Below are positions 2,792 through 64,000 of a stretch of 64,000 bases of DNA, one piece after another. Numbering within the stretch: position 1 is the first letter of the stretch; every line of letters starts with the position of its first letter. This DNA comes from Psychroserpens damuponensis. GTDB taxonomy: Bacteria > Bacteroidota > Bacteroidia > Flavobacteriales > Flavobacteriaceae. A model generated the notes under the pieces. The model was not told the origin of the DNA. It ran no database searches and saw nothing but the letters and a program-made list of their open reading frames with translations. The DNA is taken from NCBI RefSeq assembly GCF_000826655.1, contig NZ_JXJO01000024.1, positions 248,001 through 312,000 of the forward strand, read 5' to 3'. The position numbers and the translations under genes are program-made.

Positions 2792-2800
2792 TTTCCGAAG
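2792..2800 (+). repeat. first copy of dispersed word TTTCCGAAG
   Basis: Representative copy of a short dispersed word. I read TTCCGAAG or its complement at 31 sites starting at 2792, 4649, 4835, 7801, 9475, 11573, 16291, 19225, 20078, 21752, 25468, 28878, 29199, 29287, 30770, 33228, 33792, 35103, 36671, 36929, 38566, 39462, 40945, 46102, 46166, 48280, 53955, 53980, 55863, 57761 and 62415. Copies are on both strands, in different codon frames and in intergenic DNA. Function unknown; see findings. Confidence 0.85.
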
Positions 2801-2811
2801 AAAAAAATATT

Positions 2812-5136
2812 TTGAAAGTCTGTATAGCCGAAAAACCTAGTGTAGCACGAGAAATCGCGCAAGTTCTTGGTGCCAAAACAAAACGTGATGGCTATTTTGA
2901 AGGCAATGGTTATGCTGTAACTTATACGTTTGGTCATCTCTGTACATTAATGGAACCAAACGATTATAAACCGTATTGGAAAAGTTGGGATCTTAACAAC
3001 TTACCTATGTTACCCGAAAAGTTTAAAACCAAGGTGACTAACAACTCCGGAATTAAAAAACAGTTCAATATTGTAAAATCTTTGTTTGACAAAGCAGACG
3101 TTGTTATCAACTGTGGTGATGCTGGTACAGAAGGAGAACTCATACAGCGTTGGGTTTTAGATCAAGCCAATTATAAAGGAGAAGTACAACGTTTATGGAT
3201 TTCTTCATTAACCACTGAAGCGATTAAGGAAGGTTTTCAAAACCTAAAAGATTCTAAAGATTATGACAACCTTTATTACGCAGGATTTTCTCGTGCTATT
3301 GGAGATTGGTTATTAGGTATGAACGCAACACGTTTATATACTGTAAAACATGGTGGCTACAAACAAGTTTTATCTGTTGGTCGTGTGCAAACACCAACAT
3401 TGGCAATGGTTGTAAACCGTTTTAAAGATATTGAAAATTTTAAGCCTCAGCCATATTGGGAATTACAAACGATGTATCGAGACACCTTATTTGCGTATGA
3501 AGAAGGACGTTTTCTAAAAATGGAAGACGGTGAAATTCTGGCAAAAAAGGTTAAAGAAGACGATTTTGAAATCGTATCTACAGCAAAAAAGAAAGGAAAA
3601 GAATACGCACCAAAACTCTTTGATCTTACAGGTTTACAAGTGTATTGCAATACAAAATTTGGCTTTTCGGCAGATGAAACCTTAAAAATTGTTCAAAAAT
3701 TGTATGAGCAAAAAGCAGTCACTTACCCAAGAGTTGACACCACGTTTTTACCAAATGATGTTTACCCTAAAGTGCATGGTATTCTTGCTAAACTTACTAA
3801 GTACAAAGAATTAACACAACCACTTTTAGGCAAAAAAATAAAAAAATCGGCAAAAGTTTTTAATGATAAAAAAGTAACCGATCACCATGCCATAATCCCA
3901 ACTGGTATTGAAATTAATTTACAATACAACCAGCAACAAGTTTATGATATTATTGTAAAACGATTTATCGCTGTATTCTATCCAGAATGTGAAGTTTCTA
4001 ATACGACAGTAATTGGAAAAGCTGCAGACGTTAATTTTAAAACCACTGGTAAAGAGATTTTAAAAGACGGTTGGAAAGTTGTTTTTAAATTCGGAAAATC
4101 GCCATCTTCAAACACATCTGATAAAGACACGTTACCAACTTTTAACAAAGGTGAAAAAGGACCTCACGAACCTTCGTTTTTAGAGAAGCAAACCAAACCA
4201 CCAAATCAATATACGGAAGCCTCTCTCCTACGCGCTATGGAAACGGCAGGTAAGCAAGTTGATGATGACGAACTTCGTGATTTAATGAAAGAAAACGGGA
4301 TTGGTAGACCATCAACACGTGCTAATATTATTGAGACCTTATTTAAACGTCAATACATAAAACGTAATAAAAAACAATTGCTCCCAACCGTTACAGGTAT
4401 TGCGCTAATTGACACTATACAGAACGAATTATTAAAATCTGCTGAGCTCACAGGACTTTGGGAAAAACAACTTAAAGACATTGAAAAGGGTGATTATAGT
4501 GCAAGTCTTTTCATTAAAAACATGAAAATAATGGTTGATGAGTTGGTTTACGAAGTTCGTAGCGAAACTAAACGCGCCAATATCTCTCAAGCCACTGTTG
4601 TTAAGCAACGACAAGCCAAAACGAAAACAAAAAAAGCAGCTGGTATTACTTCGGAAATGTGCCCAAAATGCAAAAAAGGGTCTATTTTAAAAGGAAAATC
4701 GGCATATGGTTGTTCTGCCTTTAAATCTGGATGTGATTTTGTGATGTCATTTGAAAACTACGGAAAGAAAATTTCTGAAAAGCAATTTATCAGAATATTA
4801 AAAAAAGGGTCTACTGTAAATTTAAAAGGATTTACTTCGGAAACTGGAACAACCGAAGGTTTATTGCGTTTTGATGATAGCTTTAAATTGGTTTTAGAAG
4901 CAAAAAAAGGAACAACTAAAATTTCCGCAGTACCAAAAACAGAGCAAAAAACTGATACGCTTATATGTCCGAAATGTCATCAAGGTCAGATTATGAAAGG
5001 TAAAACGGCTTATGGCTGTAGTGCTTATAAAACGGGATGTGATTTTAAAATGTCTTTTGATGCTATTCGTGAGCAAGCTAAAGACAGAACTCTTACTAAA
5101 GAGTTAGTCTATTCTATTTTACAAAATAGTATCTAG
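2812..5136 (+). CDS. topB: DNA topoisomerase III (type IA)
   Basis: Single-strand passage topoisomerase that decatenates DNA. The 774-residue protein begins MKVCIAEKPSVAREIAQVLG, the TOPRIM start of TopB, from a TTG codon; no ATG fits. It has the TOPRIM Asp cluster (INCGDAGTEGELIQRW), the LSVGRVQTPTLAMVV block and the active-site region YPRVDTTFL with the catalytic Tyr around residue 304. The C-terminal third carries two similar zinc-ribbon repeats, CPKCKKGSILKGKSAYGCSA and CPKCHQGQIMKGKTAYGCSA, each with a following GCDF. Two copies of the CTTCGGAAA word lie inside the gene, and another lies just upstream of the start. The stop codon is TAG. Confidence 0.95.
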   Translation: MKVCIAEKPSVAREIAQVLGAKTKRDGYFEGNGYAVTYTFGHLCTLMEPNDYKPYWKSWDLNNLPMLPEKFKTKVTNNSGIKKQFNIVKSLFDKADVVINCGDAGTEGELIQRWVLDQANYKGEVQRLWISSLTTEAIKEGFQNLKDSKDYDNLYYAGFSRAIGDWLLGMNATRLYTVKHGGYKQVLSVGRVQTPTLAMVVNRFKDIENFKPQPYWELQTMYRDTLFAYEEGRFLKMEDGEILAKKVKEDDFEIVSTAKKKGKEYAPKLFDLTGLQVYCNTKFGFSADETLKIVQKLYEQKAVTYPRVDTTFLPNDVYPKVHGILAKLTKYKELTQPLLGKKIKKSAKVFNDKKVTDHHAIIPTGIEINLQYNQQQVYDIIVKRFIAVFYPECEVSNTTVIGKAADVNFKTTGKEILKDGWKVVFKFGKSPSSNTSDKDTLPTFNKGEKGPHEPSFLEKQTKPPNQYTEASLLRAMETAGKQVDDDELRDLMKENGIGRPSTRANIIETLFKRQYIKRNKKQLLPTVTGIALIDTIQNELLKSAELTGLWEKQLKDIEKGDYSASLFIKNMKIMVDELVYEVRSETKRANISQATVVKQRQAKTKTKKAAGITSEMCPKCKKGSILKGKSAYGCSAFKSGCDFVMSFENYGKKISEKQFIRILKKGSTVNLKGFTSETGTTEGLLRFDDSFKLVLEAKKGTTKISAVPKTEQKTDTLICPKCHQGQIMKGKTAYGCSAYKTGCDFKMSFDAIREQAKDRTLTKELVYSILQNSI

Positions 5137-5216: not shown

Positions 5217-5238
5217 AAGTTGAAATTCGAGAACACAC

Positions 5239-7492: not shown

Positions 7493-9156
7493 TGACAAAG
7501 ACTATTTTAACCTCTTGGCAACGCTTAATTGGATTATTAAAATTAGACAAAAAAGACATAAAACAAGTGTTCTATTATGCCATATTTGCAGGACTTGTTA
7601 ATCTTTCACTTCCTCTGGGAATTCAAGCTATTATTAATCTACTACAAGGTGCACAAATTAGTAGTTCATGGATTGTACTCGTAATATTAGTTACTTTAGG
7701 TGTGGCTTTTGCAGGTTTATTACAACTTATGCAAATGCGAATAATAGAGAATATACAACAGAAAATTTTCACTCGTTCTTCTTTTGAGTTTACATATCGA
7801 TTTCCGAAGATAAAAATGAGCGAGCTACGCAATTATTATCCTCCAGAATTAGCAAATCGCTTCTTTGACACTCTAAATGTTCAAAAAGGGTTGTCTAAGA
7901 TTTTAATTGACTTTCCTGCTGCCTTATTACAGATTATTTTTGGGTTAGTACTCCTCTCATTCTATCATCCTTTCTTTATCATTTATGGAATGTTGCTTAT
8001 TGTAATGATATATATTGTTTTCAAATTCTCGGCTCAACGAGGCTTAGATACTAGCTTAGAAGAATCAAAACAGAAATACAAAGTTGCGCACTGGATACAA
8101 GAAATTGCACGCTCTGTTTTAAGTTTTAAATTATCTGGTAAAACAAGTTTAGCGTTAGACAAAAATGATGAGCTTGTATCTAATTACTTAGACGCCAGAG
8201 AGAATCATTTTAAAATTCTAATTCAGCAGTTTATAAAGCTCATAAGTTTTAAGGTTTTAGTAACCGCTGGTTTATTAGTTATTGGTGGGATATTAGTACT
8301 TAATCAAGAAATGAACATAGGCCAATTTGTTGCAGCAGAGATTATTATTTTATTAGTTATAAACTCTGTGGAGAAGTTAATTTTAGGGCTAGAATCTTTT
8401 TATGACGTGCTTACTTCAATTGAAAAGCTAGGTCAAGTTGTTGACAAAGAATTAGAACCTCAAGATGGCGCTAATATCAGTAACACGAAATCCTTTTCAT
8501 TAGAACTAGACAATCTAAGCTACATCGTACCTGATATGATAAAACCAATCATTGAAAATATCTCCTTTACTATAAACTCTAAGGATCGTATCATGATTTA
8601 TGGTTCACATGGCTCTGGCAAGACAACACTTTTAAAACTGATAGCGGGAATTATTCAACCTACATCTGGTGTTTTATATGTTAATGATATTGCAATGCAA
8701 GGAATTAAACCCAATAATTATAGAGGTCATGTTGGACAATCTCTACCTGAAGAATCTCCTTTTGAAGGCACAATAAGGGATAATTTAACCTTTGGAGACC
8801 CTAATATTAGTAATAATGAAATCGATGATGTTTTGAAGCACACTAAGTTAATCGCTTTTGTTAAATCTCAACCTCAAGGTTTAAATACAATCCTTTATCC
8901 TGAAGGTCAAAGACTCTCATCAACTATAGCTAAAAAGATTGTTTTAGCAAGAAGTATACTTAAAAACCCAAAATTATTAATTCTAAAAGATCCTTTAGAG
9001 CAATTTGACAGAGAGGAGGCCGAGAGCATTATGAATTATTTGACAGATTCAAATAAAACATGGGCATTAGTTGTAGTTAGTTACAATCTAGAATGGATGA
9101 AAAAATGCTCTAGAGTCATCAATATAGAACAAGGTAAAATAATAGCAAACAATTAA
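7492..9156 (+). CDS. ABC exporter (membrane plus NBD fusion) with degenerate ATPase
   Basis: A 554-residue half-transporter of the HlyB/MsbA type with no C39 peptidase domain. Residues 25-310 hold the transmembrane helices; the nucleotide-binding domain follows. Walker A is intact (GSHGSGKTT, K377) and a Q-loop Gln is present (VGQSLPEESPF). The signature that should read LSGGQ is LSSTI (475-479), the Walker B Asp is Lys499, the catalytic Glu is Asp500 (LLILKDP) and the switch His is Tyr531 (VVVSYNLEW). It should bind nucleotide but hydrolyse it poorly, if at all. It overlaps the TetR stop and is followed after 4 bases by the HlyD-type adaptor, so it forms a tripartite exporter with the next two genes. 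No cargo gene is obvious. Confidence 0.9.
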   Translation: MTKTILTSWQRLIGLLKLDKKDIKQVFYYAIFAGLVNLSLPLGIQAIINLLQGAQISSSWIVLVILVTLGVAFAGLLQLMQMRIIENIQQKIFTRSSFEFTYRFPKIKMSELRNYYPPELANRFFDTLNVQKGLSKILIDFPAALLQIIFGLVLLSFYHPFFIIYGMLLIVMIYIVFKFSAQRGLDTSLEESKQKYKVAHWIQEIARSVLSFKLSGKTSLALDKNDELVSNYLDARENHFKILIQQFIKLISFKVLVTAGLLVIGGILVLNQEMNIGQFVAAEIIILLVINSVEKLILGLESFYDVLTSIEKLGQVVDKELEPQDGANISNTKSFSLELDNLSYIVPDMIKPIIENISFTINSKDRIMIYGSHGSGKTTLLKLIAGIIQPTSGVLYVNDIAMQGIKPNNYRGHVGQSLPEESPFEGTIRDNLTFGDPNISNNEIDDVLKHTKLIAFVKSQPQGLNTILYPEGQRLSSTIAKKIVLARSILKNPKLLILKDPLEQFDREEAESIMNYLTDSNKTWALVVVSYNLEWMKKCSRVINIEQGKIIANN

Positions 9157-9160
9157 GATT

Positions 9161-10516
9161 ATGCTAAACATCTCTAACAACAAATTGAATAAAACGGTAG
9201 ATTTATCTAAATATAAATCTGTTCAAAAAGTATTTCATAAAACACATTTTAAACATTTTAACCGTTTTCTACAAGCCTTTGCTATTTTAATAGTTATCAT
9301 TATGTTTTTACCTTGGACTCAAAATATTAATAGTCGAGGTAGTGTTACAACATTAACACCAGATCAACGACCACAAACAATACAATCTGTTATACCTGGA
9401 CGTATAGAGAAATGGTTTGTAAGAGAAGGTGATTTTGTAAAGCAAGGTGATACAATATTGTTCATTTCCGAAGTAAAAAACGAGTATTTTGATCCTAATC
9501 TAGTGAATAGAACTGGAAAACAAATTAAGGCTAAAGAGGCCTCTGTAGTGTCTTATGAATCAAAAATCAAAGCATTGAATTCTCAAATTACTGCTTTAAA
9601 TAGAGAGCGAGTTTTAAAATTAGAACAGGCTCAGAATACATTGTTACAATCTAAATTGAAAGTAAAAAGTGACAGTATTGACCTAGAAGCGGTAAAAACC
9701 AATTTAGAGATTGCTAAGCGACAAATTGGAGCTACAGAAAAATTATATAAAGAAGGCTTAAAATCATTAACACAATTAGAAGAAAAACAGTCTAAATTTC
9801 AAGAATCACAATCGAAATTAATTTCGCAAGAGAACAAATTTCTTGCTTCCAAAAATAATGTTATTAATGCCATGGTAGAAATCAATCGTGTGCAGGCAGA
9901 ATATACAGATAAAATTTCTAAGGCTAAGAGTGATAAATTCACAGCAGAATCAAACGGTTTTGATGCTGAAGCACAAGTTACAAAATTAGAAAGCGACTAT
10001 ACTAGCTACGAAATGCGTAATAACATGTACTACATTAAAGCTCCACAAAACGGCTATATTAATAAAGCAATAAAAGGTGGTATTGGTGAGACCTTTAAAG
10101 AAGGAGAACGTTTAGTTGGTATCATGCCGTCTAATTACGACTTAGCGGTTGAGACATTTATAAACCCTATAGATTTACCTCTTATTCATCTTAATGAGAA
10201 GGTGCGAGTACAGTTTGATGGCTGGCCTGCTGTAATTTTTAGCGGATGGCCTAATGTATCTTATGGAACCTATGGTGCAAAAGTGGTTGCTATAGAAAAT
10301 TTTATAAGTGATAACGGAAAATTTAGAATTTTATTAGCTCCAGATGAAACTGACCACCAATGGCCAGAAGCAATTAGAGTTGGTTCGGGAGCCAAAACAA
10401 TAGCACTACTTGAAGACGTCCCTATTTGGTTTGAGATCTGGAGAAAACTTAATGGTTTTCCTCCAAATTATTATCAGCCTAAAACTGCCAAAACAACTAA
10501 TTCAAATTATAAGTAA
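9161..10516 (+). CDS. HlyD-family periplasmic adaptor (membrane fusion protein)
   Basis: Links the inner-membrane exporter to the outer-membrane channel. One N-terminal membrane helix lies near residues 40-60 (FAILIVIIMFLPW). A first lipoyl half-motif follows (IPGRIEKWFVREGDFVKQGD, about residues 83-102), then a long coiled coil (about 120-280, rich in Lys, Glu and Gln), then the second half-lipoyl region (YIKAPQNGYINKAIKGGIGE) and a beta-barrel part. At 451 residues it is of normal HlyD size. Its stop overlaps the start of the TolC-family gene. Confidence 0.92.
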   Translation: MLNISNNKLNKTVDLSKYKSVQKVFHKTHFKHFNRFLQAFAILIVIIMFLPWTQNINSRGSVTTLTPDQRPQTIQSVIPGRIEKWFVREGDFVKQGDTILFISEVKNEYFDPNLVNRTGKQIKAKEASVVSYESKIKALNSQITALNRERVLKLEQAQNTLLQSKLKVKSDSIDLEAVKTNLEIAKRQIGATEKLYKEGLKSLTQLEEKQSKFQESQSKLISQENKFLASKNNVINAMVEINRVQAEYTDKISKAKSDKFTAESNGFDAEAQVTKLESDYTSYEMRNNMYYIKAPQNGYINKAIKGGIGETFKEGERLVGIMPSNYDLAVETFINPIDLPLIHLNEKVRVQFDGWPAVIFSGWPNVSYGTYGAKVVAIENFISDNGKFRILLAPDETDHQWPEAIRVGSGAKTIALLEDVPIWFEIWRKLNGFPPNYYQPKTAKTTNSNYK

Positions 10517-11916
10517 TGAGATATTTACAACTAATCGTCTTTTTATTAACGTCAACAATTTTTGCCCAAACTAAAAATTCAATAACGTTGAGTTTTAGTG
10601 AGTATTTAGGCTATGTAAAAAAATATCATCCTATTGCAAAACAAGCAGAATTAACATTACAAATTGGTCAAGCTCATTTGATGAAAGCTCGTGGTGCTTT
10701 TGATCCCAAAATTGAAATTGATAATACTCGTAAAACGTTTAAAAATATTGAGTATTATGATCAGTTAAATGCAACTTTTAAAATTCCAACATGGTATGGT
10801 ATTGAGCTGAAAGCTAATTTTGAAGACAATGATGGCACGTATTTAAATCCAGAATTAAATGTACCAGAAAACGGATTATATAGTGCTGGGATTTCAGCGT
10901 CTTTAGGTCAAGGCTTATTCATAAACCAACGCATGGCAGATTTAAAAAAAGCGAAATTATTTAAAGAACAAAGTGTTGCCGATCGAGATATATTAATTAA
11001 CCAAATACTTTACAAAGCCTCACTTTCCTACTTTAATTGGTTAAAATCTTACAATGAAACAAAAATCTATGAACAATTTTTAGAGAATTCAAAAATTAGA
11101 TTTCAAGGTATAAAACGTCGTGTAGAAAATGGAGACAAAGCACCTATAGATTCTATTGAAGCATCTATTACTATCAAAAACAGAAAATTAGGCTTAGAAC
11201 AAGCTAAAGTTAAATTAACAAAAGCTGTATTAGAATTATCTACATTTTTATGGCTTAATAACAACCTACCAATAGAACTACAATCTCATGTAATTCCCGA
11301 TGCTTTTATTGACGACACTATTGATGATGTTTTAGAGATTTCGGGAGTGTCTCTTGGTAATTTTAGTTTAGAAAATCATCCTAAATTACAATCACTTAAT
11401 TATAAATCCCTAAGCTTAGAAGTTGATAAAAAATTAAAAGCTAATAAATTATTACCTCAAATTGATGTACAATACAACTTTTTAACGCAAGATCCCGATT
11501 TAGCTAGATCTTTTAACACAAGTCAATATAAAGGCGGATTTAAAATTGCGTTTCCTATTTTTCTTCGGAAAGAACGTGCCGATTTAAAACTTTCAAAGTT
11601 TAAACTTCAAGATACCAGATTTGAAATTAGTAGTGCCAAAATTACAATTCAAAACAAGATATTAGCACTTAACAAAGAGCTAGAATCATTTAAAACACAA
11701 AACATACTGATTGAAAATATTGTTACTGATTATACAAAAATGTTGCATGCAGAAGAACGTAAATTGAGTTTTGGTGAGAGTTCTTTGTTTTTAATTAACT
11801 CACGAGAAAAAAGTTTAATTGATTCAAAATTGAAAGCAATTGAAATCCAAAATAAATACTTAGTAGCAAAAGCACAATTGTTTAATAGCCTATCTCAAGA
11901 CTTAAAAAAATTATAG
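10516..11916 (+). CDS. TolC-family outer-membrane channel protein
   Basis: A 466-residue outer-membrane efflux protein with a Sec signal peptide (MRYLQLIVFLLTSTIFAQ). The mature part has two long helical TolC repeats; FSEYLGYVKKYHPIAKQAELT and EEKRLSFGE-like stretches (AEERKLSFGESSLFLINSRE near residues 412-431) are characteristic. It is the last gene of the TetR-ABC-HlyD-TolC operon and is translationally coupled to the adaptor by a stop-start overlap. The gene downstream converges on it, so transcription should end near 11920. Confidence 0.92.
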   Translation: MRYLQLIVFLLTSTIFAQTKNSITLSFSEYLGYVKKYHPIAKQAELTLQIGQAHLMKARGAFDPKIEIDNTRKTFKNIEYYDQLNATFKIPTWYGIELKANFEDNDGTYLNPELNVPENGLYSAGISASLGQGLFINQRMADLKKAKLFKEQSVADRDILINQILYKASLSYFNWLKSYNETKIYEQFLENSKIRFQGIKRRVENGDKAPIDSIEASITIKNRKLGLEQAKVKLTKAVLELSTFLWLNNNLPIELQSHVIPDAFIDDTIDDVLEISGVSLGNFSLENHPKLQSLNYKSLSLEVDKKLKANKLLPQIDVQYNFLTQDPDLARSFNTSQYKGGFKIAFPIFLRKERADLKLSKFKLQDTRFEISSAKITIQNKILALNKELESFKTQNILIENIVTDYTKMLHAEERKLSFGESSLFLINSREKSLIDSKLKAIEIQNKYLVAKAQLFNSLSQDLKKL

Positions 11917-12748: not shown

Positions 12749-14263
12749 CTAAAACTTGCCATTAAAGCTCAATCGAAGTTTACGCGTATACTCTTCTAAT
12801 AACCATTCTTTATAATTTTTTGTACTATTCATAATACAATAACAATACTGTTTAATGCGGTAACAAATATCATCATGTAATAATTTAGACAGTTCTCTAG
12901 CCTCAAAAACATCTTCACTATTTGCAATTACCAATTTAGAATGTTGTGCTATACTGTTTTCAATTGCTTGCATTGATTTATGACCAGCTCGAGTGACTTT
13001 TTTGTATTCTTCTTTTATGTCAAAATCATCGTTAGGATTTTTCTTAAAACGTTTTTTAAGCGACTCTGGCATGGCATATACAAATTCACGCTCAATATCT
13101 TCATCGTTACGTAAATTTTCTAAATAAAAGTCTGGGTTTTTAAAAATATGTTGCCAATCTACGGGTTGACTCCAAGGTCCAAATCTAATAGCATTGTTAC
13201 CTAAATCAATAACTTTAAACGTCGTTTTATCACCTTTTATTCTAGACCCTCTTCCAATCATTTGAAAGTACAAGGTAAGTGATCGCGTTGCTCTATTTAA
13301 TATGATGGATTCTACCGAAGGTTCATCAAAACCTGTTGTTAATATACTAACAGAAGACAAGATACCATTAGGCGTATTTTTAAACCACTTTAAAATATCT
13401 TTACGCTCTTGTTTACTACAGGTATTATCCAAATGACGCACATCATAACCAGCGCGTTTAAAGGTATAATAAACCTCCTTTGACGTATTTATACCATTAT
13501 TAAAAATAAGTGTTTTTTTACCTTTACTAAGTTCTTCATATGCAAATAACAACTTGCCTTGCATTGCTGTATTACTATATAAAGCTTCAGATGATTTCAC
13601 GGTATAGTCACCGTTAATACCAATTTTTAATGTATTTAACTCGACATCATAGTTGTAAATTTCCGCAGCTGCTAAAAAACCATTTTTTATTAACGTAGAA
13701 ATATTATCACCAACAATTAGCTCTTTATAATTGTCTTTCATTGGGAGTTTAATATTACTACTTAAAGGTGTAGCTGTTACTCCAAGAATAAAGCAATTTT
13801 CAAAAAAACCAAATAATTTTCTAAACGAATTATAATGGGCTTCATCAATAATAACTAAGCCAATATCCTCTAAATTTAACTTGCCATCATTAAGCCTGTT
13901 ATTAAGCGTCTCGACCATAGCAACAAAACATTCGTATTGATCCTGATCTGGTAACTCTTTAACTTTACTGTTAATAATTTTATTATGAACACCAAAATTA
14001 TGCAATACTTTAGAGGTTTGCTTACACAATTCAATACGATGTGTTAGTATGACAACTTTCTTTTTATGCTTATTTATATATCGTCTTACAATTTCAGAAA
14101 AAATAACTGTTTTACCACCTCCTGTAGGCAGTTGGTACAATAGATTGTAGTTATTTGGAGCCGCATCAAACACTTCAAAAATGCGCTTTAAATCGGCAAT
14201 TTGATAGTCATATAGACGCTTTTTCGTTCCTTTATTTGATAAGGCTTGTAAGGTTTCGGACAT
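12749..14263 (-). CDS. SF2 DEAD/DEAH-box helicase, RadD-like
   Basis: A 504-residue ATP-dependent nucleic-acid translocase. Motif Q/I: LYDYQIADL and QLPTGGGKT (Walker A near residues 44-52); motif II is DEAH (VIIDEAH, about 139); motif III is VTATP; motifs V and VI are ILTTGFDEPSVESIIL and QMIGRGSR. This arrangement matches RadD/SSL2-type repair helicases rather than RecQ or RecG. The last about 120 residues are a family-specific helical tail. No restriction-modification or defence partner is adjacent, so a housekeeping repair role is more likely than defence. It is transcribed away from the peptide locus that follows. Confidence 0.88.
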   Translation of the reverse strand: MSETLQALSNKGTKKRLYDYQIADLKRIFEVFDAAPNNYNLLYQLPTGGGKTVIFSEIVRRYINKHKKKVVILTHRIELCKQTSKVLHNFGVHNKIINSKVKELPDQDQYECFVAMVETLNNRLNDGKLNLEDIGLVIIDEAHYNSFRKLFGFFENCFILGVTATPLSSNIKLPMKDNYKELIVGDNISTLIKNGFLAAAEIYNYDVELNTLKIGINGDYTVKSSEALYSNTAMQGKLLFAYEELSKGKKTLIFNNGINTSKEVYYTFKRAGYDVRHLDNTCSKQERKDILKWFKNTPNGILSSVSILTTGFDEPSVESIILNRATRSLTLYFQMIGRGSRIKGDKTTFKVIDLGNNAIRFGPWSQPVDWQHIFKNPDFYLENLRNDEDIEREFVYAMPESLKKRFKKNPNDDFDIKEEYKKVTRAGHKSMQAIENSIAQHSKLVIANSEDVFEARELSKLLHDDICYRIKQYCYCIMNSTKNYKEWLLEEYTRKLRLSFNGKF

Positions 14264-16090: not shown

Positions 16091-16405
16091 TTAAAAAAGT
16101 TTAGAAAGATCTATAATACTCGCTGCAAAAATTGAAATAATTAATAAAATTAAAATAGAATTCACCAACAACCCAATTATTTTTTTTACTGAAATAGGCT
16201 CTTTCAACCCTTTCATACTATAAAAAAAGCCAGTAATTCCTGCAATAAGAACTACAGCTATAGAAAAACTACTTGCGTAAGTGTATGTTTCTTCGGAAAT
16301 TCTATTACTCGCGGCCAGAAACTGAAAAAGAACAAATATCAAAAAACAAACAATCGAGATGATTGCGAACTGAAAGGCTTTATTAGTGTTTTTGCTTAAG
16401 TTCAT
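16091..16405 (-). CDS. small membrane protein, three predicted helices
   Basis: A 104-residue hydrophobic protein with a short polar N-terminus (MNLSKNTNKAFQ) and three likely membrane segments, at about residues 12-32 (FAIISIVCFLIFVLFQFLAA), 45-65 (FSIAVVLIAGITGFFYSM) and 76-98 (IIGLLVNSILILLIISIFAA). I do not recognise a family. It sits 11 bases upstream of the 3D-domain lipoprotein in the same direction and is probably co-transcribed with it. Confidence 0.7.
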   Translation of the reverse strand: MNLSKNTNKAFQFAIISIVCFLIFVLFQFLAASNRISEETYTYASSFSIAVVLIAGITGFFYSMKGLKEPISVKKIIGLLVNSILILLIISIFAASIIDLSKLF

Positions 16406-18976: not shown

Positions 18977-19924
18977 ATGAATAGAATACCAAGTGTGAAT
19001 CTTCAAGATTTTCTCTCTGAAGACGCAAATAGAAAGCAAAAATTTATTGATGAAATTGGCAAAGCCTATGAAGAAATAGGTTTTGTAGCCTTAAAAGGAC
19101 ATTTTTTAAACGACCAATTGGTTGACAACTTATATGATGAAGTAAAGAACTTTTTTGATTTACCAGTAGAAACGAAACGCAGTTATGAAATTGAAGGTAT
19201 TGGTGGCCAACGTGGTTATATTTCCTTCGGAAAAGAAAGTGCAAAAGGTAAAAAGGAAGGCGATTTAAAAGAGTTTTGGCATTTTGGACAATATGTTGAA
19301 GATGATCCTGAACGCGCTAAAGAATACCCTGAAAATGTCACAGTTAACGAACTTGAAAACTTCAATAAAACAGGTAAAGAAACCTATCAAATGTTAGAAA
19401 AAACGGCTAAATATGTATTACGTGCTTTAGCCTTATATCTAGATTTAGAAGAGACTTATTTTGATAATTATATCCATAATGGAAATTCAATATTAAGACC
19501 TATTCATTACCCTCCTATTCTTGAAGAACCTGAAAATGCAGTGCGTGCTGCTGCTCATGGCGATATCAATTTAATTACCTTATTAATGGGAGCTCAAGGA
19601 CGAGGACTTCAAGTACAAAATCATAAGGGTGAATGGATTGATGCTATGGCAGAGCCTGACGAATTAATGATTAATGTTGGTGATATGTTATCGAGACATA
19701 CCAACAATAAATTAAAATCTACGATTCACAGAGTTGTAAATCCGCCACGAGAACTTTGGGGAACGTCGCGCTACTCTATTCCATTTTTTATGCATCCAAT
19801 TAGTGAAATGAAATTAGATGTATTAGAAAGTTGTATTGATGAAGACAATCCTAAGCAGTTTGACGATATCACAGCTGGTGAGTTTTTAAATGAACGCTTA
19901 ATAGAACTTGGACTTAAGAAATAA
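18977..19924 (+). CDS. isopenicillin N synthase-family 2OG-Fe(II) oxygenase
   Basis: A 315-residue non-haem iron oxygenase of the plant-type DIOX/IPNS family. The N-terminal helical domain includes IPSVNLQDFLSEDANRKQKF and EEIGFVALKGHF; the double-stranded beta helix follows. Iron ligands are HxD in AAHGDINLITLLMGA (near residue 193) and the distal His in KLKSTIHRVVNPP (near 250); the co-substrate Arg is in TSRYSIPFF. The substrate is unknown; members of this group act on small metabolites or amino acids. About 100 bases holding a heptanucleotide repeat separate it from the eIF1-like gene. Confidence 0.88.
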   Translation: MNRIPSVNLQDFLSEDANRKQKFIDEIGKAYEEIGFVALKGHFLNDQLVDNLYDEVKNFFDLPVETKRSYEIEGIGGQRGYISFGKESAKGKKEGDLKEFWHFGQYVEDDPERAKEYPENVTVNELENFNKTGKETYQMLEKTAKYVLRALALYLDLEETYFDNYIHNGNSILRPIHYPPILEEPENAVRAAAHGDINLITLLMGAQGRGLQVQNHKGEWIDAMAEPDELMINVGDMLSRHTNNKLKSTIHRVVNPPRELWGTSRYSIPFFMHPISEMKLDVLESCIDEDNPKQFDDITAGEFLNERLIELGLKK

Positions 19925-30744: not shown

Positions 30745-30798
30745 AAGCTCTTTTAGTGTTATAGGGACATTTCCGAAGAAATATAAATTATTTAAGTA

Positions 30799-48185: not shown

Positions 48186-49358
48186 ATGATCAAAAAAATC
48201 AGTCTTCTCTTCGTCATCACCTTACTCTTTAACTGTAAAAACGAACCAAATAAAAATGCTGCTAAGATATTAGCAAATGCTTCGGAAATATCTAACTCCA
48301 AAACCATTGAGCCTACAAAAAATACCGAAATCGTATTTTGTCTCGATGCAACAGGTAGTATGAGCGGACTTATAGGTACAGCAAAAGAAAAAATTTGGGA
48401 CATTGTTACAGAATTAGCACAAAGCAATGATGTAGATACGCTAAAAATGGGAATGGTTTTTTATAGAGATCGAAGCGACACGTTTATAACCAAACAAATT
48501 GCCATCACTACAGATTTAGATGAAGTCTATGCAGATTTACTAGAAATGACAGCCGATGGTGGAGGCGACACTCCAGAAAGCGTCAATCAAGCTTTACACG
48601 AATCGATTACTAATATGACATGGTCTACAGACAACCATACATATAGAACCATATTTGTGGTTGGCGATTGTCCGCCACATATGGATTACCAAGATGATGT
48701 TAAATACACAGAGAGTTGCAAACTCGCAGCCGAGAAAGGTATTATTATAAATACCATCAAACTAGGTAAAAGTTGCGAAGAAGCAATCCCACATTTTAGA
48801 GCGATGTCTCAATGTACTAATGGTGAATTTCTAATGCTAGATCAAGATGCCAAAGATTATGTAATCGCAACACCGTTTGATCAAGAAATTAACGAACTCT
48901 CAAAAGAAATTGATAATACGAGAATGTATTATGGCACACATAATGAGCGCGAATATAATTACGAAAAGAAAGATAAATCTATGCAAGCCTATACCGATGG
49001 TTCACCTACTGCAAATAGCAAACGTGCCGAATATAAAAACAGTAAAGTAGGCAAAAAAGGATCGTATGGTACCAATGAAATTATTAATGATTATAACGAC
49101 GGAAAGTTGAAACTAGACGCTATAGCTGATAATAAGTTACCTCAAGAATTACGAGGTTTAAGCACTGCCGAAAAAGAAAGCATTATTAAAGACCTGTCTA
49201 ACAAACGAAAAATGAACGCATCTCAACTACAAGAGTTGTTTAAAAAGAAAAATGCTTATATCAAATCAAAAGAAAGCAAGCAAGCCGATAGCACGTCGTT
49301 TAGTAAAGAAGTGGTGAAAATTTTGAAAGAGCAGTCACATGAGAAAGGTGATGAATAA
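48186..49358 (+). CDS. VWA-domain lipoprotein
   Basis: A 390-residue exported protein; signal MIKKISLLFVITLLFNC with a lipobox Cys at about 17. The von Willebrand factor A domain starts at about residue 48 (IVFCLDATGSMSGLIGTAKE), with the metal-ion-dependent adhesion motif DxTGSMS; the second and third MIDAS positions are at MVFYRDRSDTF and TADGGGDTPESV. The C-terminal third is Lys/Glu/Ser-rich and repetitive in feel (YKNSKVGKKGSYGTNEI, LSTAEKESIIKDLSNKRK). It probably binds a periplasmic or surface protein. No MoxR ATPase is adjacent, so the common MoxR-VWA pairing is absent here. Confidence 0.88.
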   Translation: MIKKISLLFVITLLFNCKNEPNKNAAKILANASEISNSKTIEPTKNTEIVFCLDATGSMSGLIGTAKEKIWDIVTELAQSNDVDTLKMGMVFYRDRSDTFITKQIAITTDLDEVYADLLEMTADGGGDTPESVNQALHESITNMTWSTDNHTYRTIFVVGDCPPHMDYQDDVKYTESCKLAAEKGIIINTIKLGKSCEEAIPHFRAMSQCTNGEFLMLDQDAKDYVIATPFDQEINELSKEIDNTRMYYGTHNEREYNYEKKDKSMQAYTDGSPTANSKRAEYKNSKVGKKGSYGTNEIINDYNDGKLKLDAIADNKLPQELRGLSTAEKESIIKDLSNKRKMNASQLQELFKKKNAYIKSKESKQADSTSFSKEVVKILKEQSHEKGDE

Positions 49359-53698: not shown

Positions 53699-54590
53699 AT
53701 GGATTTACAACAAAGAATTAACGCATTTGTAAAATTAGGAGACTTTTTAAGTCAATTTTCTTCAAAAGGGTTTGAAAAAAAAGACCATATAGAGCATAAT
53801 GATTTGTTTTTTGACACCTTTAAACATCAAATAAAACTCGCACAAGAGCACAATGGCTGGTTTACACAAGAGAATGTTGTATTTGCTTTACAAGGTTGGG
53901 CTAAACAATTGACAAATAGCAACATTACCAAATGGACCTCAAACTATAATTTCTCTTCGGAAAGTTTAAAAAATAACGTTTTCCGAAGAAAAACTAACCA
54001 ACTTTGATGCAGTTATTGCGACAGGAAGTGATAATACAGCGCGTTATTTTGAATACTATTTTAGAGACAAACCTTCTGTGATTAGAAAAAACAGAAATTC
54101 TGTTGCTATTTTAACTGGTAATGAGACTGAAGAGGAGCTTGTAGCGCTTTCTGAAGATATATTTAGATATTACGGTTTGGGTTGTAGAAACGTATCTAAA
54201 TTATTTGTCCCTAAGGCTTATAATTTTGATGCCTTTTTTAAGGCCATGTATCATTGGAATCCCATCATACACCAATCTAAATACGCCAATAATTACGATT
54301 ATAATAAGGCGGTATATTTAATGAGTTTATTTAAGATGTTAGAAAACGGATTTTTAATGGTTAAAGAAGATGACAGCTTCTCATCTCCTATCGCCACTGT
54401 GTTTTATGAACACTATGAGTCTGAATCACAATTAAAAGCTACTTTAGAAGCAAAAAGTGATGCGATACAATGTGTGGTTTCTAACGGATTTTTAGAGTCC
54501 GAAATTAAATTTGGACACACACAATTGCCAAATTTATGGGATTATGCCGATAATGTTGATACTATTGCGTTTTCGTTGAAAATCTGTTAA
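53699..54590 (+). pseudogene. acyl-CoA reductase (LuxC-like), broken by internal deletion and frameshift
   Basis: The first 102-codon frame (53699-54007) starts [20 protein letters not shown] and ends abruptly after YNFSSESLKNN with a nonsense tail. A second frame, one base off, is open from about 53980 and reads FSEEKLTNFDAVIATGSDNT, RKNRNSVAILTGNETEEELV, FRYYGLGCRNVSKLFVP (catalytic Cys) and LWDYADNVDTIAFSLKIC to the stop at 54590. Compared with family layout as I remember it, roughly 55-65 residues covering the nucleotide-binding GNIP region are missing. Both frames are otherwise well conserved. The break lies inside an inverted pair of the TTCCGAAG word (53955-53963 and 53980-53988). The enzyme is probably dead. 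Confidence 0.8.
53953..53990. repeat. inverted pair of TTCCGAAG words at the gene break
   Basis: TTCGGAAA and TTTCCGAA arms with short flanks form an 11-base inverted repeat around about 16 bases of AT-rich loop, right where the acyl-CoA reductase frame changes. It is the only close inverted pair of the word in the window and could be a deletion hot spot or a structure-forming terminator. Confidence 0.6.
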
Positions 54591-55782: not shown

Positions 55783-55989
55783 TATGAGCATGTCGCGAAC
55801 ATTATTAGATTAATAAGTGCAGTAAATGCGCGCTCTAATAGTAAACCATAGTATGTTTATGTCTTCGGAAATATAACACAATCACGTTCTTGCCGTTGTA
55901 AGAACATAGTAAATAAGAGTTCCAGTTAAACGGAAACAAAAATTAAACAAGATTCTCATTTTGATGAGAATGAAAAAATCATTTTTTCA

Positions 55990-57745: not shown

Positions 57746-57862
57746 AGTGTCTTTTATTGTCTTCGGAAATTCAAATCGCAAACCGTCAATTATCTCAATA
57801 AAAAAATAGTATCTGTTAGATAAAACGACTTGTCATGCACATTTCAGCTTAAAAAATGACAT

Positions 57863-60666: not shown

Positions 60667-62352
60667 ATGAAATACTTTTTCGCTTTCATTTTTTTCTCTC
60701 AATTTGTCTTTAGTCAATCTCCTTATCCTCAGGACTATTTTAGAAGTCCGTTAGATGTTAAGGTCATATTATCAGGTACATTTGCTGAGCTAAGATCCAA
60801 TCATTTTCATTCAGGTTTAGATATAAAAACACAACAGCGAACTGGCTTAAATGTATATGGTGTTGCTGAAGGTTACGTAAGTAGAATTAAAGTATCTCAT
60901 TATGGTTACGGAAAAGCACTATACATCACACATCCTAACGGTTATGTAAGTGTGTATGCACATTTAAGTAAATTTTCACCACGCATTCAAAAATATATTA
61001 AAACGTGTCAATACGATAAAGAAAGTTACGAAGTAGAAGTATTTCCTTCTCCTGATGAATTGCCAATTTCCGCAGATGAAATCGTAGCATTTTCTGGCAA
61101 TAGCGGAAGCTCTGGAGGACCACATTTACATTTTGAAATACGCGATAATGAAGAACGACCTATCAACCCAATGCTTTTTGGGATTGATGTTGAAGACACC
61201 AAACCACCATTTTTAAGCGCTGTATATGCCTACCCAAAAAACAAAAGAGCACATATAAATCAAAATAAAAAAAGAACAGAACTACGCCTCATCCCAACTA
61301 GTAAAGGAGATTACACTACCGAGCCTATTGAAGCCATTGGCGATATTGGCTTTGGAGTTGTGAGTTATGATCAACAAGATAGAGCTTATAACAAAAATGG
61401 TTTGAGTAATATTCAAAGTTTTTACAATGGCAATAAAACCTTTGAGATGGATTTTAAGCGTTTTAGTTTTGACGAATCCAAACACATCAATCGTTTTATT
61501 GATTACGAAGTATACAAAGAAAAAAAATCTAGAATTCAAAAGCTCTTTGTACAATCTGGCAACACCTTAAGCATGTTAAAAGATGTTGATGCTAATGGTT
61601 ACATAACCGTTGAAGACAGCACAAGTACTGTTTACAAAGTAAGGTTAAGAGATTTTAAAGGAAATGAAGCCTGGCTATCAATTCCGGTAAAAGGAAAACG
61701 CGCTAAAGAAATTCTCGAAGCGCCAGAACTTAAACCAAACACCTATATTATAGCCAATCAGGTTAATGAATTAGATCAAGGTAATGTATCTGTTTATTTT
61801 CCTAAGCAAACATTCTACGAAGATTTTCATATCGATTTTAGCGTAGCAAACGATACGCTTAAACTCCATAAAAACACCATACCATTAATGAAAAGTTACA
61901 CCATAAACTTTGATATTAAAAATTATGTAGAAGACGATAAAGACAAATTATTTATAGCCAGTTTATACGGTTATTACCAAAAACCGAGTTATATAAGCAC
62001 AAAACGTTTAGGAGATAAATTATCTGCTAGAACTAAATATTTAGGCACGTTCACTTTAGCAAGTGACACTGTAAGCCCAACCGTCAAGCCTGTAAATTTT
62101 CAAAACGGCAAATGGTTGAGCAAATTAAGCACTCTAAAAGTAAAAATTGATGACGACTTATCTGGCATAAGTAATTATAGAGCAACCATTAATGGCAAAT
62201 GGATTTTAATGGAGTACGATTATAAAAAAGATACCTTGACTTACGATTTTGATGACAATATAAATACAGAAACCGAAAACAATCTAAAAATAATTGTAAC
62301 CGATAATGTTGGAAATAGTACTACATTTGAATCTACGTTTTTTAGGAAATAA
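60667..62352 (+). CDS. M23-family peptidase with C-terminal beta domains
   Basis: A 561-residue exported protein; signal KYFFAFIFFSQFVFSQ. The LytM-type M23 domain occupies about residues 30-170: HFHSGLDIKTQQRTGLNVYG, then SHYGYGKALYITHPNGYVSV, YAHLSKFSP and the GGPHLHFEIR zinc and catalytic His. The remaining about 390 residues are beta-rich with SGISNYRATINGKWILMEY (an Ig-like repeat shared with cell-surface proteins) and no sorting signal. It probably cuts or only binds peptidoglycan peptides. A TonB-dependent receptor gene follows 15 bases later. Confidence 0.88.
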   Translation: MKYFFAFIFFSQFVFSQSPYPQDYFRSPLDVKVILSGTFAELRSNHFHSGLDIKTQQRTGLNVYGVAEGYVSRIKVSHYGYGKALYITHPNGYVSVYAHLSKFSPRIQKYIKTCQYDKESYEVEVFPSPDELPISADEIVAFSGNSGSSGGPHLHFEIRDNEERPINPMLFGIDVEDTKPPFLSAVYAYPKNKRAHINQNKKRTELRLIPTSKGDYTTEPIEAIGDIGFGVVSYDQQDRAYNKNGLSNIQSFYNGNKTFEMDFKRFSFDESKHINRFIDYEVYKEKKSRIQKLFVQSGNTLSMLKDVDANGYITVEDSTSTVYKVRLRDFKGNEAWLSIPVKGKRAKEILEAPELKPNTYIIANQVNELDQGNVSVYFPKQTFYEDFHIDFSVANDTLKLHKNTIPLMKSYTINFDIKNYVEDDKDKLFIASLYGYYQKPSYISTKRLGDKLSARTKYLGTFTLASDTVSPTVKPVNFQNGKWLSKLSTLKVKIDDDLSGISNYRATINGKWILMEYDYKKDTLTYDFDDNINTETENNLKIIVTDNVGNSTTFESTFFRK

Positions 62353-62367
62353 ATAAAAATCAACCTT

Positions 62368-64000
62368 TTGAAGCTATACATCACACTACTTATTGCCTTT
62401 ATTGGCTTTTCTTACTTCGGAAATTCGCAAACCGCAACCATTAGAGGTGTCATTCTAGATGATGCTAAAATGCCTATTACAGGCGTCAACATTAAAGCTG
62501 GTAGCGATGGAACAACCACTAATGACAACGGATTTTTTATTTTAAAAATCCCAGCCAATACTGATGTCACTATCATTTTTAGTCACCTTTCTCACAAATC
62601 TGTTACGCAAACTTTTAATTTAAAAAGCGGTCAAGAATTAGAGTTCAATCCAGTTATGAAGGTTGATATTGAACAAATAGGCATGGTCGTTATTAATACA
62701 AATACACGCCAAAAAGTAGATGGTGTGGTAACCATCACACCCGAAGTTATTAGAACCGTAAAAGGTGCGCAACCTGGTGTAGAAAACCTATTAAAAACAC
62801 TTCCTGGTGTAAATATCTCGAACGAATTAAGCACGCAATACTCCGTTCGTGGTGGAAATTTTGATGAGAATCTTGTTTATGTTAACGAAATTGAAATTTA
62901 TAGACCATTTTTAATTCGGTCTGGTCAACAAGAAGGTTTAAGCTTTGTGAATACCGATTTGGTACAAAATGTAGATTTCTCTGCTGGAGGATTTCAAGCT
63001 AAATATGGAGATAAACTCTCCTCTGTTCTAGATATCACCTATCGAAATCCTAATAGTTTTGGCATACGTGCAGATGCAAGTTTACTTGGAGGAAGCCTTT
63101 CTGCCGAAGCTGTGAGCAAAGATTCAAAGTTTTCTGGTATTGTTGGATTACGTTATCGTGACAATAGTTTATTAATAAATTCACTAGAAACCGAAACCAA
63201 TGTAAAACCAGTTTTTGCTGATGCTCAAACCTATTTAACGTATAAGTTTAGTGATAAGTTTCATCTTAATTTCCTCGGAAATATCTCACTCAACAAATAT
63301 ACCTTTCAACCAAAAAATCGTCAAACTAATTTTGGAACACTCGATGAGCCTGTAGCGCTTTTGGTATTTTATGACGGACAAGAAAAAGACGAATACTTAA
63401 CTAATTTTGGTGCTTTTAAAGCCAATTATTTCGCAACCGAAGACTTAACACTTAAATTAATAGCTTCTGCTTATCATACTACTGAAGAAGAATACTTTGA
63501 TATTTTGGCACAGTATAGACTAGGTGAAGTTAATAGTAATATTGGAGACGAGAATTTGGGTGAAGTAGAATTTTCTGAAGGTATAGGATCTCAACTCACA
63601 CACGCACGTAATGATTTGGATGCCCTTATTTTTAATGTAGAACATAAAGGTGATTACAAAATAGATGATGAAACAACCTTAGAATGGTCTGTAAAATATA
63701 CGCATGAAGATATACGAGATCGTTTGGTAGAATGGGAAGTTATTGATAGTGCAGGATTCTCAGTAAGACCTCCAATTTATGATTTTCCAAACAATCAACC
63801 TTACGACGCTTTTGAAGGTCCCTTAGTGGCATTTCAAAATGTGAGAGCTACCAATGCTGTTCAAATTGATAGACTTCAAGCCTATGCACAGTGGAGCAAA
63901 CGTACAATGCTTGGTAACAATGAAGTATTTTATAATGCTGGTGTGAGAGTTCATAATTGGACGGTAAATAGCGATATTGCTAACCAAGATGGCGTGTCGT
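62368..64000 (+). CDS. TonB-dependent receptor, 3' partial
   Basis: The frame starts at TTG 62368 (MKLYITLLIAFIGFSYFGNS) and runs off the right edge, so only about 540 residues are visible. A signal peptide is followed by a CarboxypepD_reg domain (ATIRGVILDDAKMPITGVNI) and the receptor plug (VKGAQPGVENLLKTLPGVNI, QYSVRGGNFDENLVYVNEIE, FSAGGFQAKYGDKLSSVLDI), then the start of the barrel. It is not preceded by a TonB box I can see. The M23 gene upstream is in the same orientation. Ligand unknown. It carries the TTTCCGAAG word at 62415. Confidence 0.92.
   Translation, partial: MKLYITLLIAFIGFSYFGNSQTATIRGVILDDAKMPITGVNIKAGSDGTTTNDNGFFILKIPANTDVTIIFSHLSHKSVTQTFNLKSGQELEFNPVMKVDIEQIGMVVINTNTRQKVDGVVTITPEVIRTVKGAQPGVENLLKTLPGVNISNELSTQYSVRGGNFDENLVYVNEIEIYRPFLIRSGQQEGLSFVNTDLVQNVDFSAGGFQAKYGDKLSSVLDITYRNPNSFGIRADASLLGGSLSAEAVSKDSKFSGIVGLRYRDNSLLINSLETETNVKPVFADAQTYLTYKFSDKFHLNFLGNISLNKYTFQPKNRQTNFGTLDEPVALLVFYDGQEKDEYLTNFGAFKANYFATEDLTLKLIASAYHTTEEEYFDILAQYRLGEVNSNIGDENLGEVEFSEGIGSQLTHARNDLDALIFNVEHKGDYKIDDETTLEWSVKYTHEDIRDRLVEWEVIDSAGFSVRPPIYDFPNNQPYDAFEGPLVAFQNVRATNAVQIDRLQAYAQWSKRTMLGNNEVFYNAGVRVHNWTVNSDIANQDGVS

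What the first reader, a model, noticed from the sequence alone, without database searches (positions are those of the whole stretch)
2792..62423. Dispersed word TTCCGAAG, about 31 copies in 64 kb, independent of strand, codon frame and gene
Seen in sequence: TTCCGAAG or CTTCGGAA starts at 2792, 4649, 4835, 7801, 9475, 11573, 16291, 19225, 20078, 21752, 25468, 28878, 29199, 29287, 30770, 33228, 33792, 35103, 36671, 36929, 38566, 39462, 40945, 46102, 46166, 48280, 53955, 53980, 55863, 57761 and 62415. In 26 of these the word is the 9-mer TTTCCGAAG, and the base after it is usually A or T followed by A. It is read as Ser-Glu, Phe-Gly-Lys, Phe-Pro-Lys and Leu-Arg-Lys codons, and some copies are intergenic (2792, 30770, 55863, 57761), so it is a DNA-level signal. 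My rough estimate for chance at about one-third G+C is near 1 copy. Inference: an uptake-signal-like word, recombination (Chi-like) word or chromosome-architecture word. Spacing of about 2 kb is similar to known DNA uptake sequences.
Basis: partly seen in the sequence, partly recalled or inferred. Interest (0 to 1): 0.88.

Follow-up and report, generated by a model that had tools for sequence, protein, structure and literature searches.

The report
DNA-uptake-like watermark words in flavobacteria
This marine bacterium's genome is sprinkled with a short DNA word, about 1,500 times, that looks like the "own DNA" watermark some other bacteria use when they absorb DNA from their surroundings, and members of the same family carry the same word, a different word, or none that stands out.

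Summary
The window holds 31 copies of TTCCGAAG against 1.3 expected, and the 3.95-Mb genome holds 1,520. It is a DNA-level signal: genes hold 160 copies against 9.5 when synonymous codons are shuffled, and density doubles between genes.

The element is asymmetric and longer than 8 bp. One core position is clearly loose (TTTCCG[A>T>C]AG). In intergenic copies T-rich stretches lie upstream and an A-rich tract downstream, recalling the Pasteurellaceae uptake signal. There is no consistent strand polarity, which argues against Chi- and KOPS-like roles.

By my count 27 of 299 family genomes (18 of 236 genera) are strongly enriched. Dokdonia, Nonlabens and a few other family members instead carry 445–933 copies of a palindrome, CTTTCGCGAAAG, and are not enriched for this word.

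Best explanation: an uptake-signal-like word with lineage dialects, spread by biased DNA uptake and recombination. Uptake was not tested. Genes resembling a Riemerella operon essential for transformation are present, but the receptor type does not cleanly track the word, and this genome is itself the counter-example. My searches found no report of such words in Bacteroidota.

The parts
2793..2800 (+). word TTCCGAAG, intergenic
4649..4656 (-). word, in topoisomerase III ORF
4835..4842 (-). word, in topoisomerase III ORF
7802..7809 (+). word, in ABC exporter-like ORF 7492-9156
9466..9473 (+). word (reader gave 9475)
11563..11570 (-). word (reader gave 11573)
16291..16298 (-). word
19225..19232 (-). 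word
20079..20086 (+). word
21753..21760 (+). word
25468..25475 (-). word, in mutS2 ORF
28878..28885 (-). word
29199..29206 (-). word; inverted pair with 29287
29287..29294 (+). word; inverted pair with 29199
30771..30778 (+). word, intergenic
33228..33235 (-). word
33792..33799 (+). word
35103..35110 (-). word
36672..36679 (+). word
36929..36936 (-). word
38566..38573 (-). word
39463..39470 (+). word
40945..40952 (-). word, in gyrA/parC-like ORF
46103..46110 (+). word; pair with 46166
46166..46173 (-). word; pair with 46103
48280..48287 (-). word
53955..53962 (-). word; inverted pair with 53981 (starts 26 bp apart)
53981..53988 (+). word; inverted pair with 53955
55863..55870 (-). word, intergenic
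57761..57768 (-). word, intergenic
62415..62422 (-). word, intergenic
724..731 (-). tolerated variant TTCCGCAG
4758..4765 (-). tolerated variant TTCCGTAG
4923..4930 (+). tolerated variant TTCCGCAG
13661..13668 (+). tolerated variant TTCCGCAG
20852..20859 (-). tolerated variant TTCCGCAG
25587..25594 (-). tolerated variant TTCCGTAG
45029..45036 (+). tolerated variant TTCCGTAG
61068..61075 (+). tolerated variant TTCCGCAG

Best explanation
TTTCCG[A>T>C]AG, with its flanking T-rich and A-rich stretches, is most likely the uptake signal of a natural-transformation system in Flavobacteriaceae. A cell-surface DNA receptor prefers DNA that carries the element. Fragments with it are taken up and recombined more often, so copies accumulate wherever coding constraint allows, with no other job in the chromosome. 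Different lineages hold different dialects: TTTCCGAAG in the Psychroserpens and Aequorivita/Altibacter groups, and CGCTTTCGCGAAAGCG in Dokdonia and Nonlabens. Shown here: the word, its anatomy, its lack of strand bias, its turnover, its dialect distribution, and the presence of genes that resemble transformation genes. Inferred: that a receptor reads it, and that uptake bias maintains it.
For: Abundance: 1,520 copies, 1 per 2.6 kb, 779 forward and 741 reverse. Not codon-driven: 160 against 9.45 in CDS. Intergenic density is 0.80/kb against 0.36/kb in coding (37 and 151 sites). Sharp, directional core with one clearly loose position: A to T 26 against 2.1, A to C 13 against 1.6; the symmetric form TTTCCGAAA is not enriched (5 against 6.6). 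Extended anatomy is strongest where no protein is encoded (42 intergenic sites): T-rich at -16..-14 and -8..-6, A at -2 in 76%, T at -1 in 90%, A-rich from +8 to +16 with 90% A at +10. The core with A at +9 or +10 recurs in 7 of 9 other genomes or groups sampled. Of 17 neighbouring pairs within 100 bp, 10 are '-+' against one quarter expected, p=0.003. None in a 38-kb polysaccharide cluster. Turnover: in 36 comparisons of window words with four relatives, 11 are shared, 25 window-only, 23 relative-only. Dialects: by my count 27 of 299 genomes for the word, 4 of 299 with 445-917 copies of the palindrome, none strongly enriched for both. A gene pair with the domains and order of two R. anatipestifer genes essential for transformation is present (PMC8459023, sections 19-20 read). 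R. columbina prefers its own DNA (PMC7965970, section 16 read).
Against: No uptake or transformation experiment exists for these genera in anything I read, and F. johnsoniae was not transformable under the conditions tried (PMC7965970, passages). ComEC is present but also rings in 10 of 14 control genomes, so it says little. The candidate receptor does not cleanly predict the word: G000, among the most word-rich, has only the receptor type found in wordless Winogradskyella, and the pair test had too few events. DUF5689 is in 271 of 299 genomes whereas strong words are rare. Spacing is random, not more even than random as reported for USS. Close pairs are barely more numerous than chance (17 against 13.1 by Poisson, my sum); only their orientation is skewed. 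There is no bias to gene ends (p=0.30). One-mismatch forms outside the first and the loose position sum to 104 against about 87 (my sum), so there is little halo. Enrichment outside Psychroserpens is more modest: 2.4 to 8.3-fold in 8 of 9 other samples. A perfect palindrome as a dialect is unlike the uptake sequences I know (recall).
Confidence: 0.55

Rival explanations
1. A binding site for a chromosome-organising or nucleoid-associated protein, spread along the chromosome and used in both orientations.
For: Asymmetric core with T/A-rich flanks suits a bending protein. No strand bias; random spacing along two contigs and the window.
Against: Positions turn over between relatives, and 15 genomes sampled at 40-103 kb show no standout word, so a chromosome function would have to be dispensable and its specificity replaced repeatedly. 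I know of no such system with about 1,500 sites (recall).
Confidence: 0.17
2. A HIP1-like word made or kept by a DNA methyltransferase and repair bias.
For: The Dokdonia/Nonlabens form is a perfect palindrome, and alternative HIPs replace one another between cyanobacterial lineages (PMC4390886, abstract read). The two words do not occur together at high number.
Against: The window's word is asymmetric and its symmetric form is not enriched. The extended T/A-rich flanks reach about 16 bp upstream and 9 bp downstream, beyond what a methylation site would need.
Confidence: 0.1
3. A Chi-like recombination hotspot read by AddAB/RecBCD, or a KOPS/AIMS segregation word.
For: 8-9-mer, very over-represented, mostly inside genes.
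Against: Such words are polar to replication (recall). Here there are 92 + and 96 - sites with no consistent bias along segments, the largest imbalances being 2/7, 9/4 and 2/0, and 779/741 genome-wide. Origin and terminus were not mapped. A palindromic counterpart would have no polarity.
Confidence: 0.05
4. By-product of codon or codon-pair usage, or RNA hairpins (cUUCGg tetraloops, terminators).
For: Ser-Glu and Phe-Gly-Lys readings are common.
Against: Within-gene synonymous shuffle gives 9.45 against 160. Denser between genes. In the hairpin orientation the T-run precedes the loop, and 151 of 188 sites lie inside genes.
Confidence: 0.02

Closest known systems
Uptake signal sequence (USS) of Pasteurellaceae
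   Same: 9-bp asymmetric core, AT-rich segment on the 3' side, no orientation bias, some closely spaced oppositely oriented pairs, two subclade types (PMC1626085, passages read). One orientation commoner in genes (PMC2346458, first of three parts read; here 92 against 128, p=0.018).
   Different: Different core, different phylum. Here also T-rich stretches upstream. Spacing random rather than more regular, no bias to gene ends, lower density (1 per 2.6 kb, against about 1 per kb).
DNA uptake sequence (DUS) dialects of Neisseriaceae
   Same: Lineage dialects consistent with phylogeny (PMC3630211, abstract read). Atypical words mark imported elements (PMC7371117, abstract read), as the palindrome islands here may do.
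   Different: Neisserial DUS has no flanking motifs (PMC1626085 passage). Its receptor is ComP (PMC3868556, search listing only), a type IV pilin (recall); no pilin was looked for here. No palindromic dialect is known to me (recall).
HIP1 of cyanobacteria
   Same: High-frequency word, replaced by alternative palindromes in some lineages (PMC4390886, abstract read).
   Different: The window's word is directional with long flanks; a methyltransferase link was not tested.
Riemerella natural transformation system
   Same: A carboxypeptidase-regulatory-domain protein next to a DUF5689 / choice-of-anchor-J protein, as in this genome (PMC8459023 sections 19-20). Self-DNA preference reported for R. 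columbina (PMC7965970 section 16).
   Different: Match is by domains and gene order; no Riemerella sequence was aligned here. The R. columbina paper counted raw k-mers in three species and listed only A/T-rich words, without a Markov model (section 16).

Membership tests
DUS/USS uptake sequences | Hundreds to thousands of copies, far above Markov expectation | tested here: met
   1,520 copies; 188 against 9.45 in 464 kb
DUS/USS uptake sequences | No orientation bias | tested here: met
   92/96 in the sample, 779/741 genome-wide; origin and terminus not mapped
DUS/USS uptake sequences | Tolerated in genes, denser between genes | tested here: met
   0.36 against 0.80 per kb
DUS/USS uptake sequences | Core plus AT-rich flanking segments (USS only) | tested here: met
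DUS/USS uptake sequences | Some closely spaced oppositely oriented pairs | tested here: met
   13 of 17 close pairs are opposite, 10 of them '-+'; the number of close pairs, 17 against 13.1, is hardly raised
DUS/USS uptake sequences | Spacing more regular than random | tested here: not met
   CV 1.00 and 0.96 on two contigs, 0.79 in the window; P=0.57, 0.43, 0.10
DUS/USS uptake sequences | Bias to gene ends (Pasteurellaceae) | tested here: not met
   quintiles 43/47/38/55/37, p=0.30
DUS/USS uptake sequences | Lineage dialects | tested here: met
DUS/USS uptake sequences | Organism is naturally competent and prefers DNA with the word | not testable with these tools
   Only candidate genes found
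DUS/USS uptake sequences | A receptor whose type follows the dialect | tested here: inconclusive
Chi / KOPS / AIMS | Polarity to replication | tested here: not met
   by strand counts and GC skew of contig segments only
HIP1-like palindromes | Palindromic word | tested here: not met
   TTTCCGAAA 5 against 6.6 expected; met only for the Dokdonia/Nonlabens word
HIP1-like palindromes | Cognate methyltransferase | not tested
   no methylome or target data

The most novel reading that the evidence does not exclude
Flavobacteriaceae run an uptake-sequence system of their own, evolved independently of those in Proteobacteria. An outer-membrane plug-domain protein with a surface DUF5689 partner (a SusCD-like pair, not a pilin) reads a watermark word. 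Lineages have switched between an asymmetric dialect (TTTCCGAAG with T/A flanks) and a palindromic one (CGCTTTCGCGAAAGCG), so that the word acts as a barrier to gene flow.
Probability: 0.25. Interest if true: 0.9.

Novelty: new variant of a known kind. Interest (0 to 1): 0.76.

Why it matters
Uptake sequences are, to my knowledge (recall), firmly known only in Pasteurellaceae and Neisseriaceae. A third, independent case in Bacteroidota, with two dialects, would let the old question of why such words accumulate (selfish drive, mate recognition or a chromosome role) be tested by comparison. It would also point to a receptor for the little-understood flavobacterial transformation machinery. The words may serve as markers of imported DNA and as tags that could make marine flavobacteria transformable in the laboratory.

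Tried and rejected
Codon or codon-pair bias: rejected by synonymous shuffle. TTCAGAAA/TTCTGAAA, which looked like a second word in several genomes, is explained by codon use in the own genome (59 against 57); the other genomes were not shuffled. Palindrome or methylation site: the symmetric form is not enriched. Chi/KOPS polarity: none seen. A dispersed word in every genus: not so. Samples of 40-103 kb from Winogradskyella, Hanstruepera, Bizionia, Algibacter, Aurantibacter, Wocania, Kordia, unnamed G059, G143, G154, G044, G265, G153, G115 and the genome of L041 show no word that stands out like the two described; an early hint in L041 (CCCGATAG) faded with more sequence.

Receptor as determinant: the 8-row type A clade has 1 of 8 genomes with a word (G000 itself), the other 23 have 21 (G073 counted in at a ratio of 2.8); but I chose genomes partly by word status, and the independent-pair test had only 2 supported pairs. 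Genus-matched pairs in which one genome lacks DUF5689 (7 pairs; for G249, G251 and G292 the lack is read from their absence's list of matches): the main receptor (over 40% identity) is also missing from all 7 of those genomes, and in one pair (g92) from both. The word/control ratio is higher in the receptor-bearing genome in 5 of the 6 discordant pairs, but only g31 (G030 35/74 without, G256 181/82 with) involves a clearly raised count, and four of these genomes are 84-88% complete. G202 (68% complete) has the word at 415/39 and no main receptor found. Sequence search of the two candidate proteins against solved structures: no hits. Other families of the order: no comparable enrichment in the 53 genomes of other families among 60 searched.

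Literature: searches found no report of such words in Bacteroidota. The library is open-access only, so a work under other terms could be missed. One search listed 10 of 36 papers; none of the ten titles concerns bacterial DNA uptake, and the other 26 were not seen.


Full report
OBSERVATION. TTCCGAAG occurs 31 times in the window (12 +, 19 -) against 1.28 in dinucleotide shuffles. It is the top over-represented word at every length from 6 to 12, itself or an overlapping fragment or extension. In the whole genome (3.95 Mb, 106 contigs) there are 779 forward and 741 reverse copies; the same word read backwards occurs 175 times. In a 464-kb sample (two 200-kb contig pieces plus the window) there are 188 against 9.45 expected. 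The host is a Flavobacteriaceae bacterium close to Arcticiflavibacter and Psychroserpens: best named matches of the gyrase/topoisomerase IV A-like protein are 94% to A. luteus and 90% to P. burtonensis.

NOT A CODON EFFECT. With gene models from a simple ORF caller, genes of a 484-kb sample hold 160 copies against a mean of 9.45 (maximum 14) in 20 shuffles that keep each protein and its codon use; the runners-up are mostly overlapping fragments and the near-variants CTACGGAA and CTGCGGAA. Density is 0.80 per kb between genes and 0.36 in genes. The six coding frames are used unequally: frames that need the Arg codons CGA or CGG are rare (5 and 7 sites), the others hold 15-50.

ANATOMY. All single changes of TTTCCGAAG were counted in 464 kb. 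The first T is soft (16 against 2.4 for A, 22 against 2.1 for C, 5 against 1.2 for G). The seventh base (A) may be T (26 against 2.1) or C (13 against 1.6). Other changes are mostly near expectation, with modest or small-count rises (21 against 8.5 for C to T at the second C; 4 against 0.8 for T to C at the third base; 5 against 1.2 for A to G at the eighth). The symmetric TTTCCGAAA is not enriched. Split by context, 42 intergenic sites (variants included) show T at -16/-15/-14 (55/52/71%) and -8/-7/-6 (57/62/67%), A at -4 and -2 (55/76%), T at -1 (90%), then the core, then A at +8 to +16 (57-90%; A is 42% in the same sites further upstream). The pattern is weaker in 92 same-strand and 129 opposite-strand coding sites, but still there (A at +10: 83% and 71%), so it is not a by-product of Ser-Glu-Glu or Lys codons. 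The core with A at +9 or +10 recurs in seven of the nine other genomes or groups (G063, G254, G241, G078, G012, Altibacter, G076); G076 also shares the upstream T.A.AT (19 sites). G198 had too few sites (11), and the 13 of Aequorivita show no A at +9 or +10.

DISTRIBUTION IN THE GENOME. No segment of the sample (up to 40 kb each) shows an orientation bias that follows GC skew or gene strand; the largest imbalances are 2/7, 9/4 and 2/0. Origin and terminus were not mapped. Spacing is random. Within genes the word is on the coding strand 92 times and on the other 128 (p=0.018), with no bias to gene ends (p=0.30). Seventeen neighbouring pairs lie within 100 bp against about 13 expected; 10 are '-+' (p=0.003), 3 '+-', 4 in the same direction. 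A 38,048-bp stretch of contig C1 has no copy or variant (Poisson 2e-12 at the contig's density, for a gap picked because it was the largest). Its genes include sugar transferase, glycosyltransferases, O-acyltransferases and a DegT aminotransferase (8 of 9 proteins scanned had a hit), that is, a surface-polysaccharide cluster, a kind of locus often exchanged horizontally (general knowledge, not tested here).

TURNOVER. The window was aligned with nine relatives' loci. With the four that share the word and have enough overlap (L009, L010, L013, L012; 77-82% identical) 36 comparisons were possible: 11 shared, 25 window-only, 23 relative-only. The shared fraction was 6 of 10, 1 of 7, 3 of 10 and 1 of 9, against 27, 20, 17 and 19% of all 8-mers being identical. 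The other five gave 0 shared of 10, 7 of these against Winogradskyella, with 4 relative-only. Copies are thus gained and lost while density stays high in the word-bearing group, as expected for drive or for weak selection on density rather than for fixed functional sites.

DISTRIBUTION IN THE FAMILY. Among 299 family genomes (own included), 27 by my count (18 of 236 genera) have at least 150 copies of TTTCCGAAG and at least 3 times the reversed control: G279 1,166/93, G000 1,134/62, G063 1,048/115, G012 921/91, G076 817/58 and others. The control ratio is a rough yardstick: in the own sample the Markov expectation is about half of the control. Against a Markov model, samples of other word-bearing genomes give TTCCGAAG 2.4 to 8.3-fold (own 19.7; G076 84.5 on an expectation of only 0.2). 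A tree of that topoisomerase protein from 79 genomes, chosen partly for being word-rich, places enrichment in all 6 of the Psychroserpens group, which is nested in an otherwise mostly word-poor clade of 39 (Winogradskyella, Bizionia, Algibacter and others; G062 is an exception), in 15 of a 22-row Aequorivita/Altibacter clade, and in a few others; at least 11 changes of state. Nonlabens and Dokdonia carry CTTTCGCGAAAG instead: 581, 627 and 933 copies in three named genomes, and 445-917 in 4 of 299 family genomes, with at most 21 in the remaining 295. Of those four, G010 groups with Nonlabens and G242 is of its genus; G190 and G206 were not placed. All seven have only 2-39 TTTCCGAAG. Among 102 strand-wise TTCGCGAA sites (51 places) from Dokdonia, Nonlabens and G010, 64 extend to CGCTTTCGCGAAAGCG, with T at -7/-6 and -13 and the mirrored A's, about one helical turn from the centre, as are the upstream T's of the window's word. 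The two words resemble each other (TTTC-CGAA-G and TTTCGCGAAAG), which is suggestive only. In 60 genomes of the order, none of the 53 from other families is comparably enriched.

MACHINERY. ComEC is present at G000:C23, but this family also rings in 10 of 14 control genomes. G000:C11 holds a 926-aa protein with a carboxypeptidase-regulatory domain and a weak TonB-plug match (21.4 bits, below Pfam's 23.9), overlapping by 20 bases a 493-aa DUF5689 protein with a choice-of-anchor-J domain and a sub-threshold match to a lipoprotein family. Two R. anatipestifer proteins with these domains, predicted to lie in one operon, are essential for transformation (PMC8459023, abstract and sections 19-20); I infer homology from domains and order. 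DUF5689 is in 271 of 299 family genomes. The tree of the larger protein separates a type held by wordless genomes (Kordia, Wocania, Algibacter, Aurantibacter, Winogradskyella, Hanstruepera, Bizionia) from the rest, and Psychroserpens sides with the rest against its species position. But G000, sister to P. burtonensis in the topoisomerase tree, has a Winogradskyella-like copy (78% identity) and otherwise only a distant paralogue (27-29%). The receptor link is therefore a lead with a counter-example, possibly a recent replacement.

MECHANISM. I judge uptake signal the best reading (0.55). Abundance, strand neutrality, tolerance in genes, the extended A/T-flanked asymmetric element, skewed close pairs, absence from a polysaccharide locus, turnover and dialects fit the descriptions of USS and DUS (PMC1626085 passages; PMC2346458 part 1; PMC3630211 and PMC1939737 abstracts). 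Regular spacing and gene-end bias are not met. Direct proof of uptake is missing. A chromosome-binding protein is the main rival (0.17), then a HIP-like process (0.10).

NOVELTY. Searches of the open-access library for uptake sequences with Bacteroidetes or Flavobacteria, for over-represented palindromes with Dokdonia, and for both words found no prior report. The one paper found that looked (PMC7965970, section 16) listed only A/T-rich k-mers in three other species. I file it as a new variant of a known kind.

Noticed in passing
G101 (= G341 by counts):C1:436589-437533; G078:C1:2829432-2830376; G087:C1:2561728-2562672; G215:C1:1156267-1157211: Pairs of the Dokdonia/Nonlabens palindrome exactly 933 bp apart in four genomes of different genera that hold only 4-7 copies each: probably one shared mobile element carrying the foreign word.
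   Followed up: no
G333:C5:46470-103345; G012:C18:74148-174391; G201:C1:1884127-1916868: Islands of 5-8 palindrome copies in genomes that otherwise hold few of them (G333 and G012 are rich in TTTCCGAAG instead): likely imported DNA.
   Followed up: no
L167:10631-14873 (G000:C11): The window's genome has a Winogradskyella-like candidate transformation receptor (78% identity) although its closest sampled relatives have another type (61-64%): likely horizontal replacement of the operon.
   Followed up: partly
window 59599-59730 (-): 6S-Flavo RNA at the Rfam gathering threshold.
   Followed up: no
window: About 10 overlapping occurrences of GATTGATTGA / TCAATCAATC type short repeats.
   Followed up: no
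G000 sample (C1, C24, C11, window): Palindrome GGCTAGCC 18 (both strands counted) against 2.6 under synonymous shuffling in genes; unexplained.
   Followed up: no
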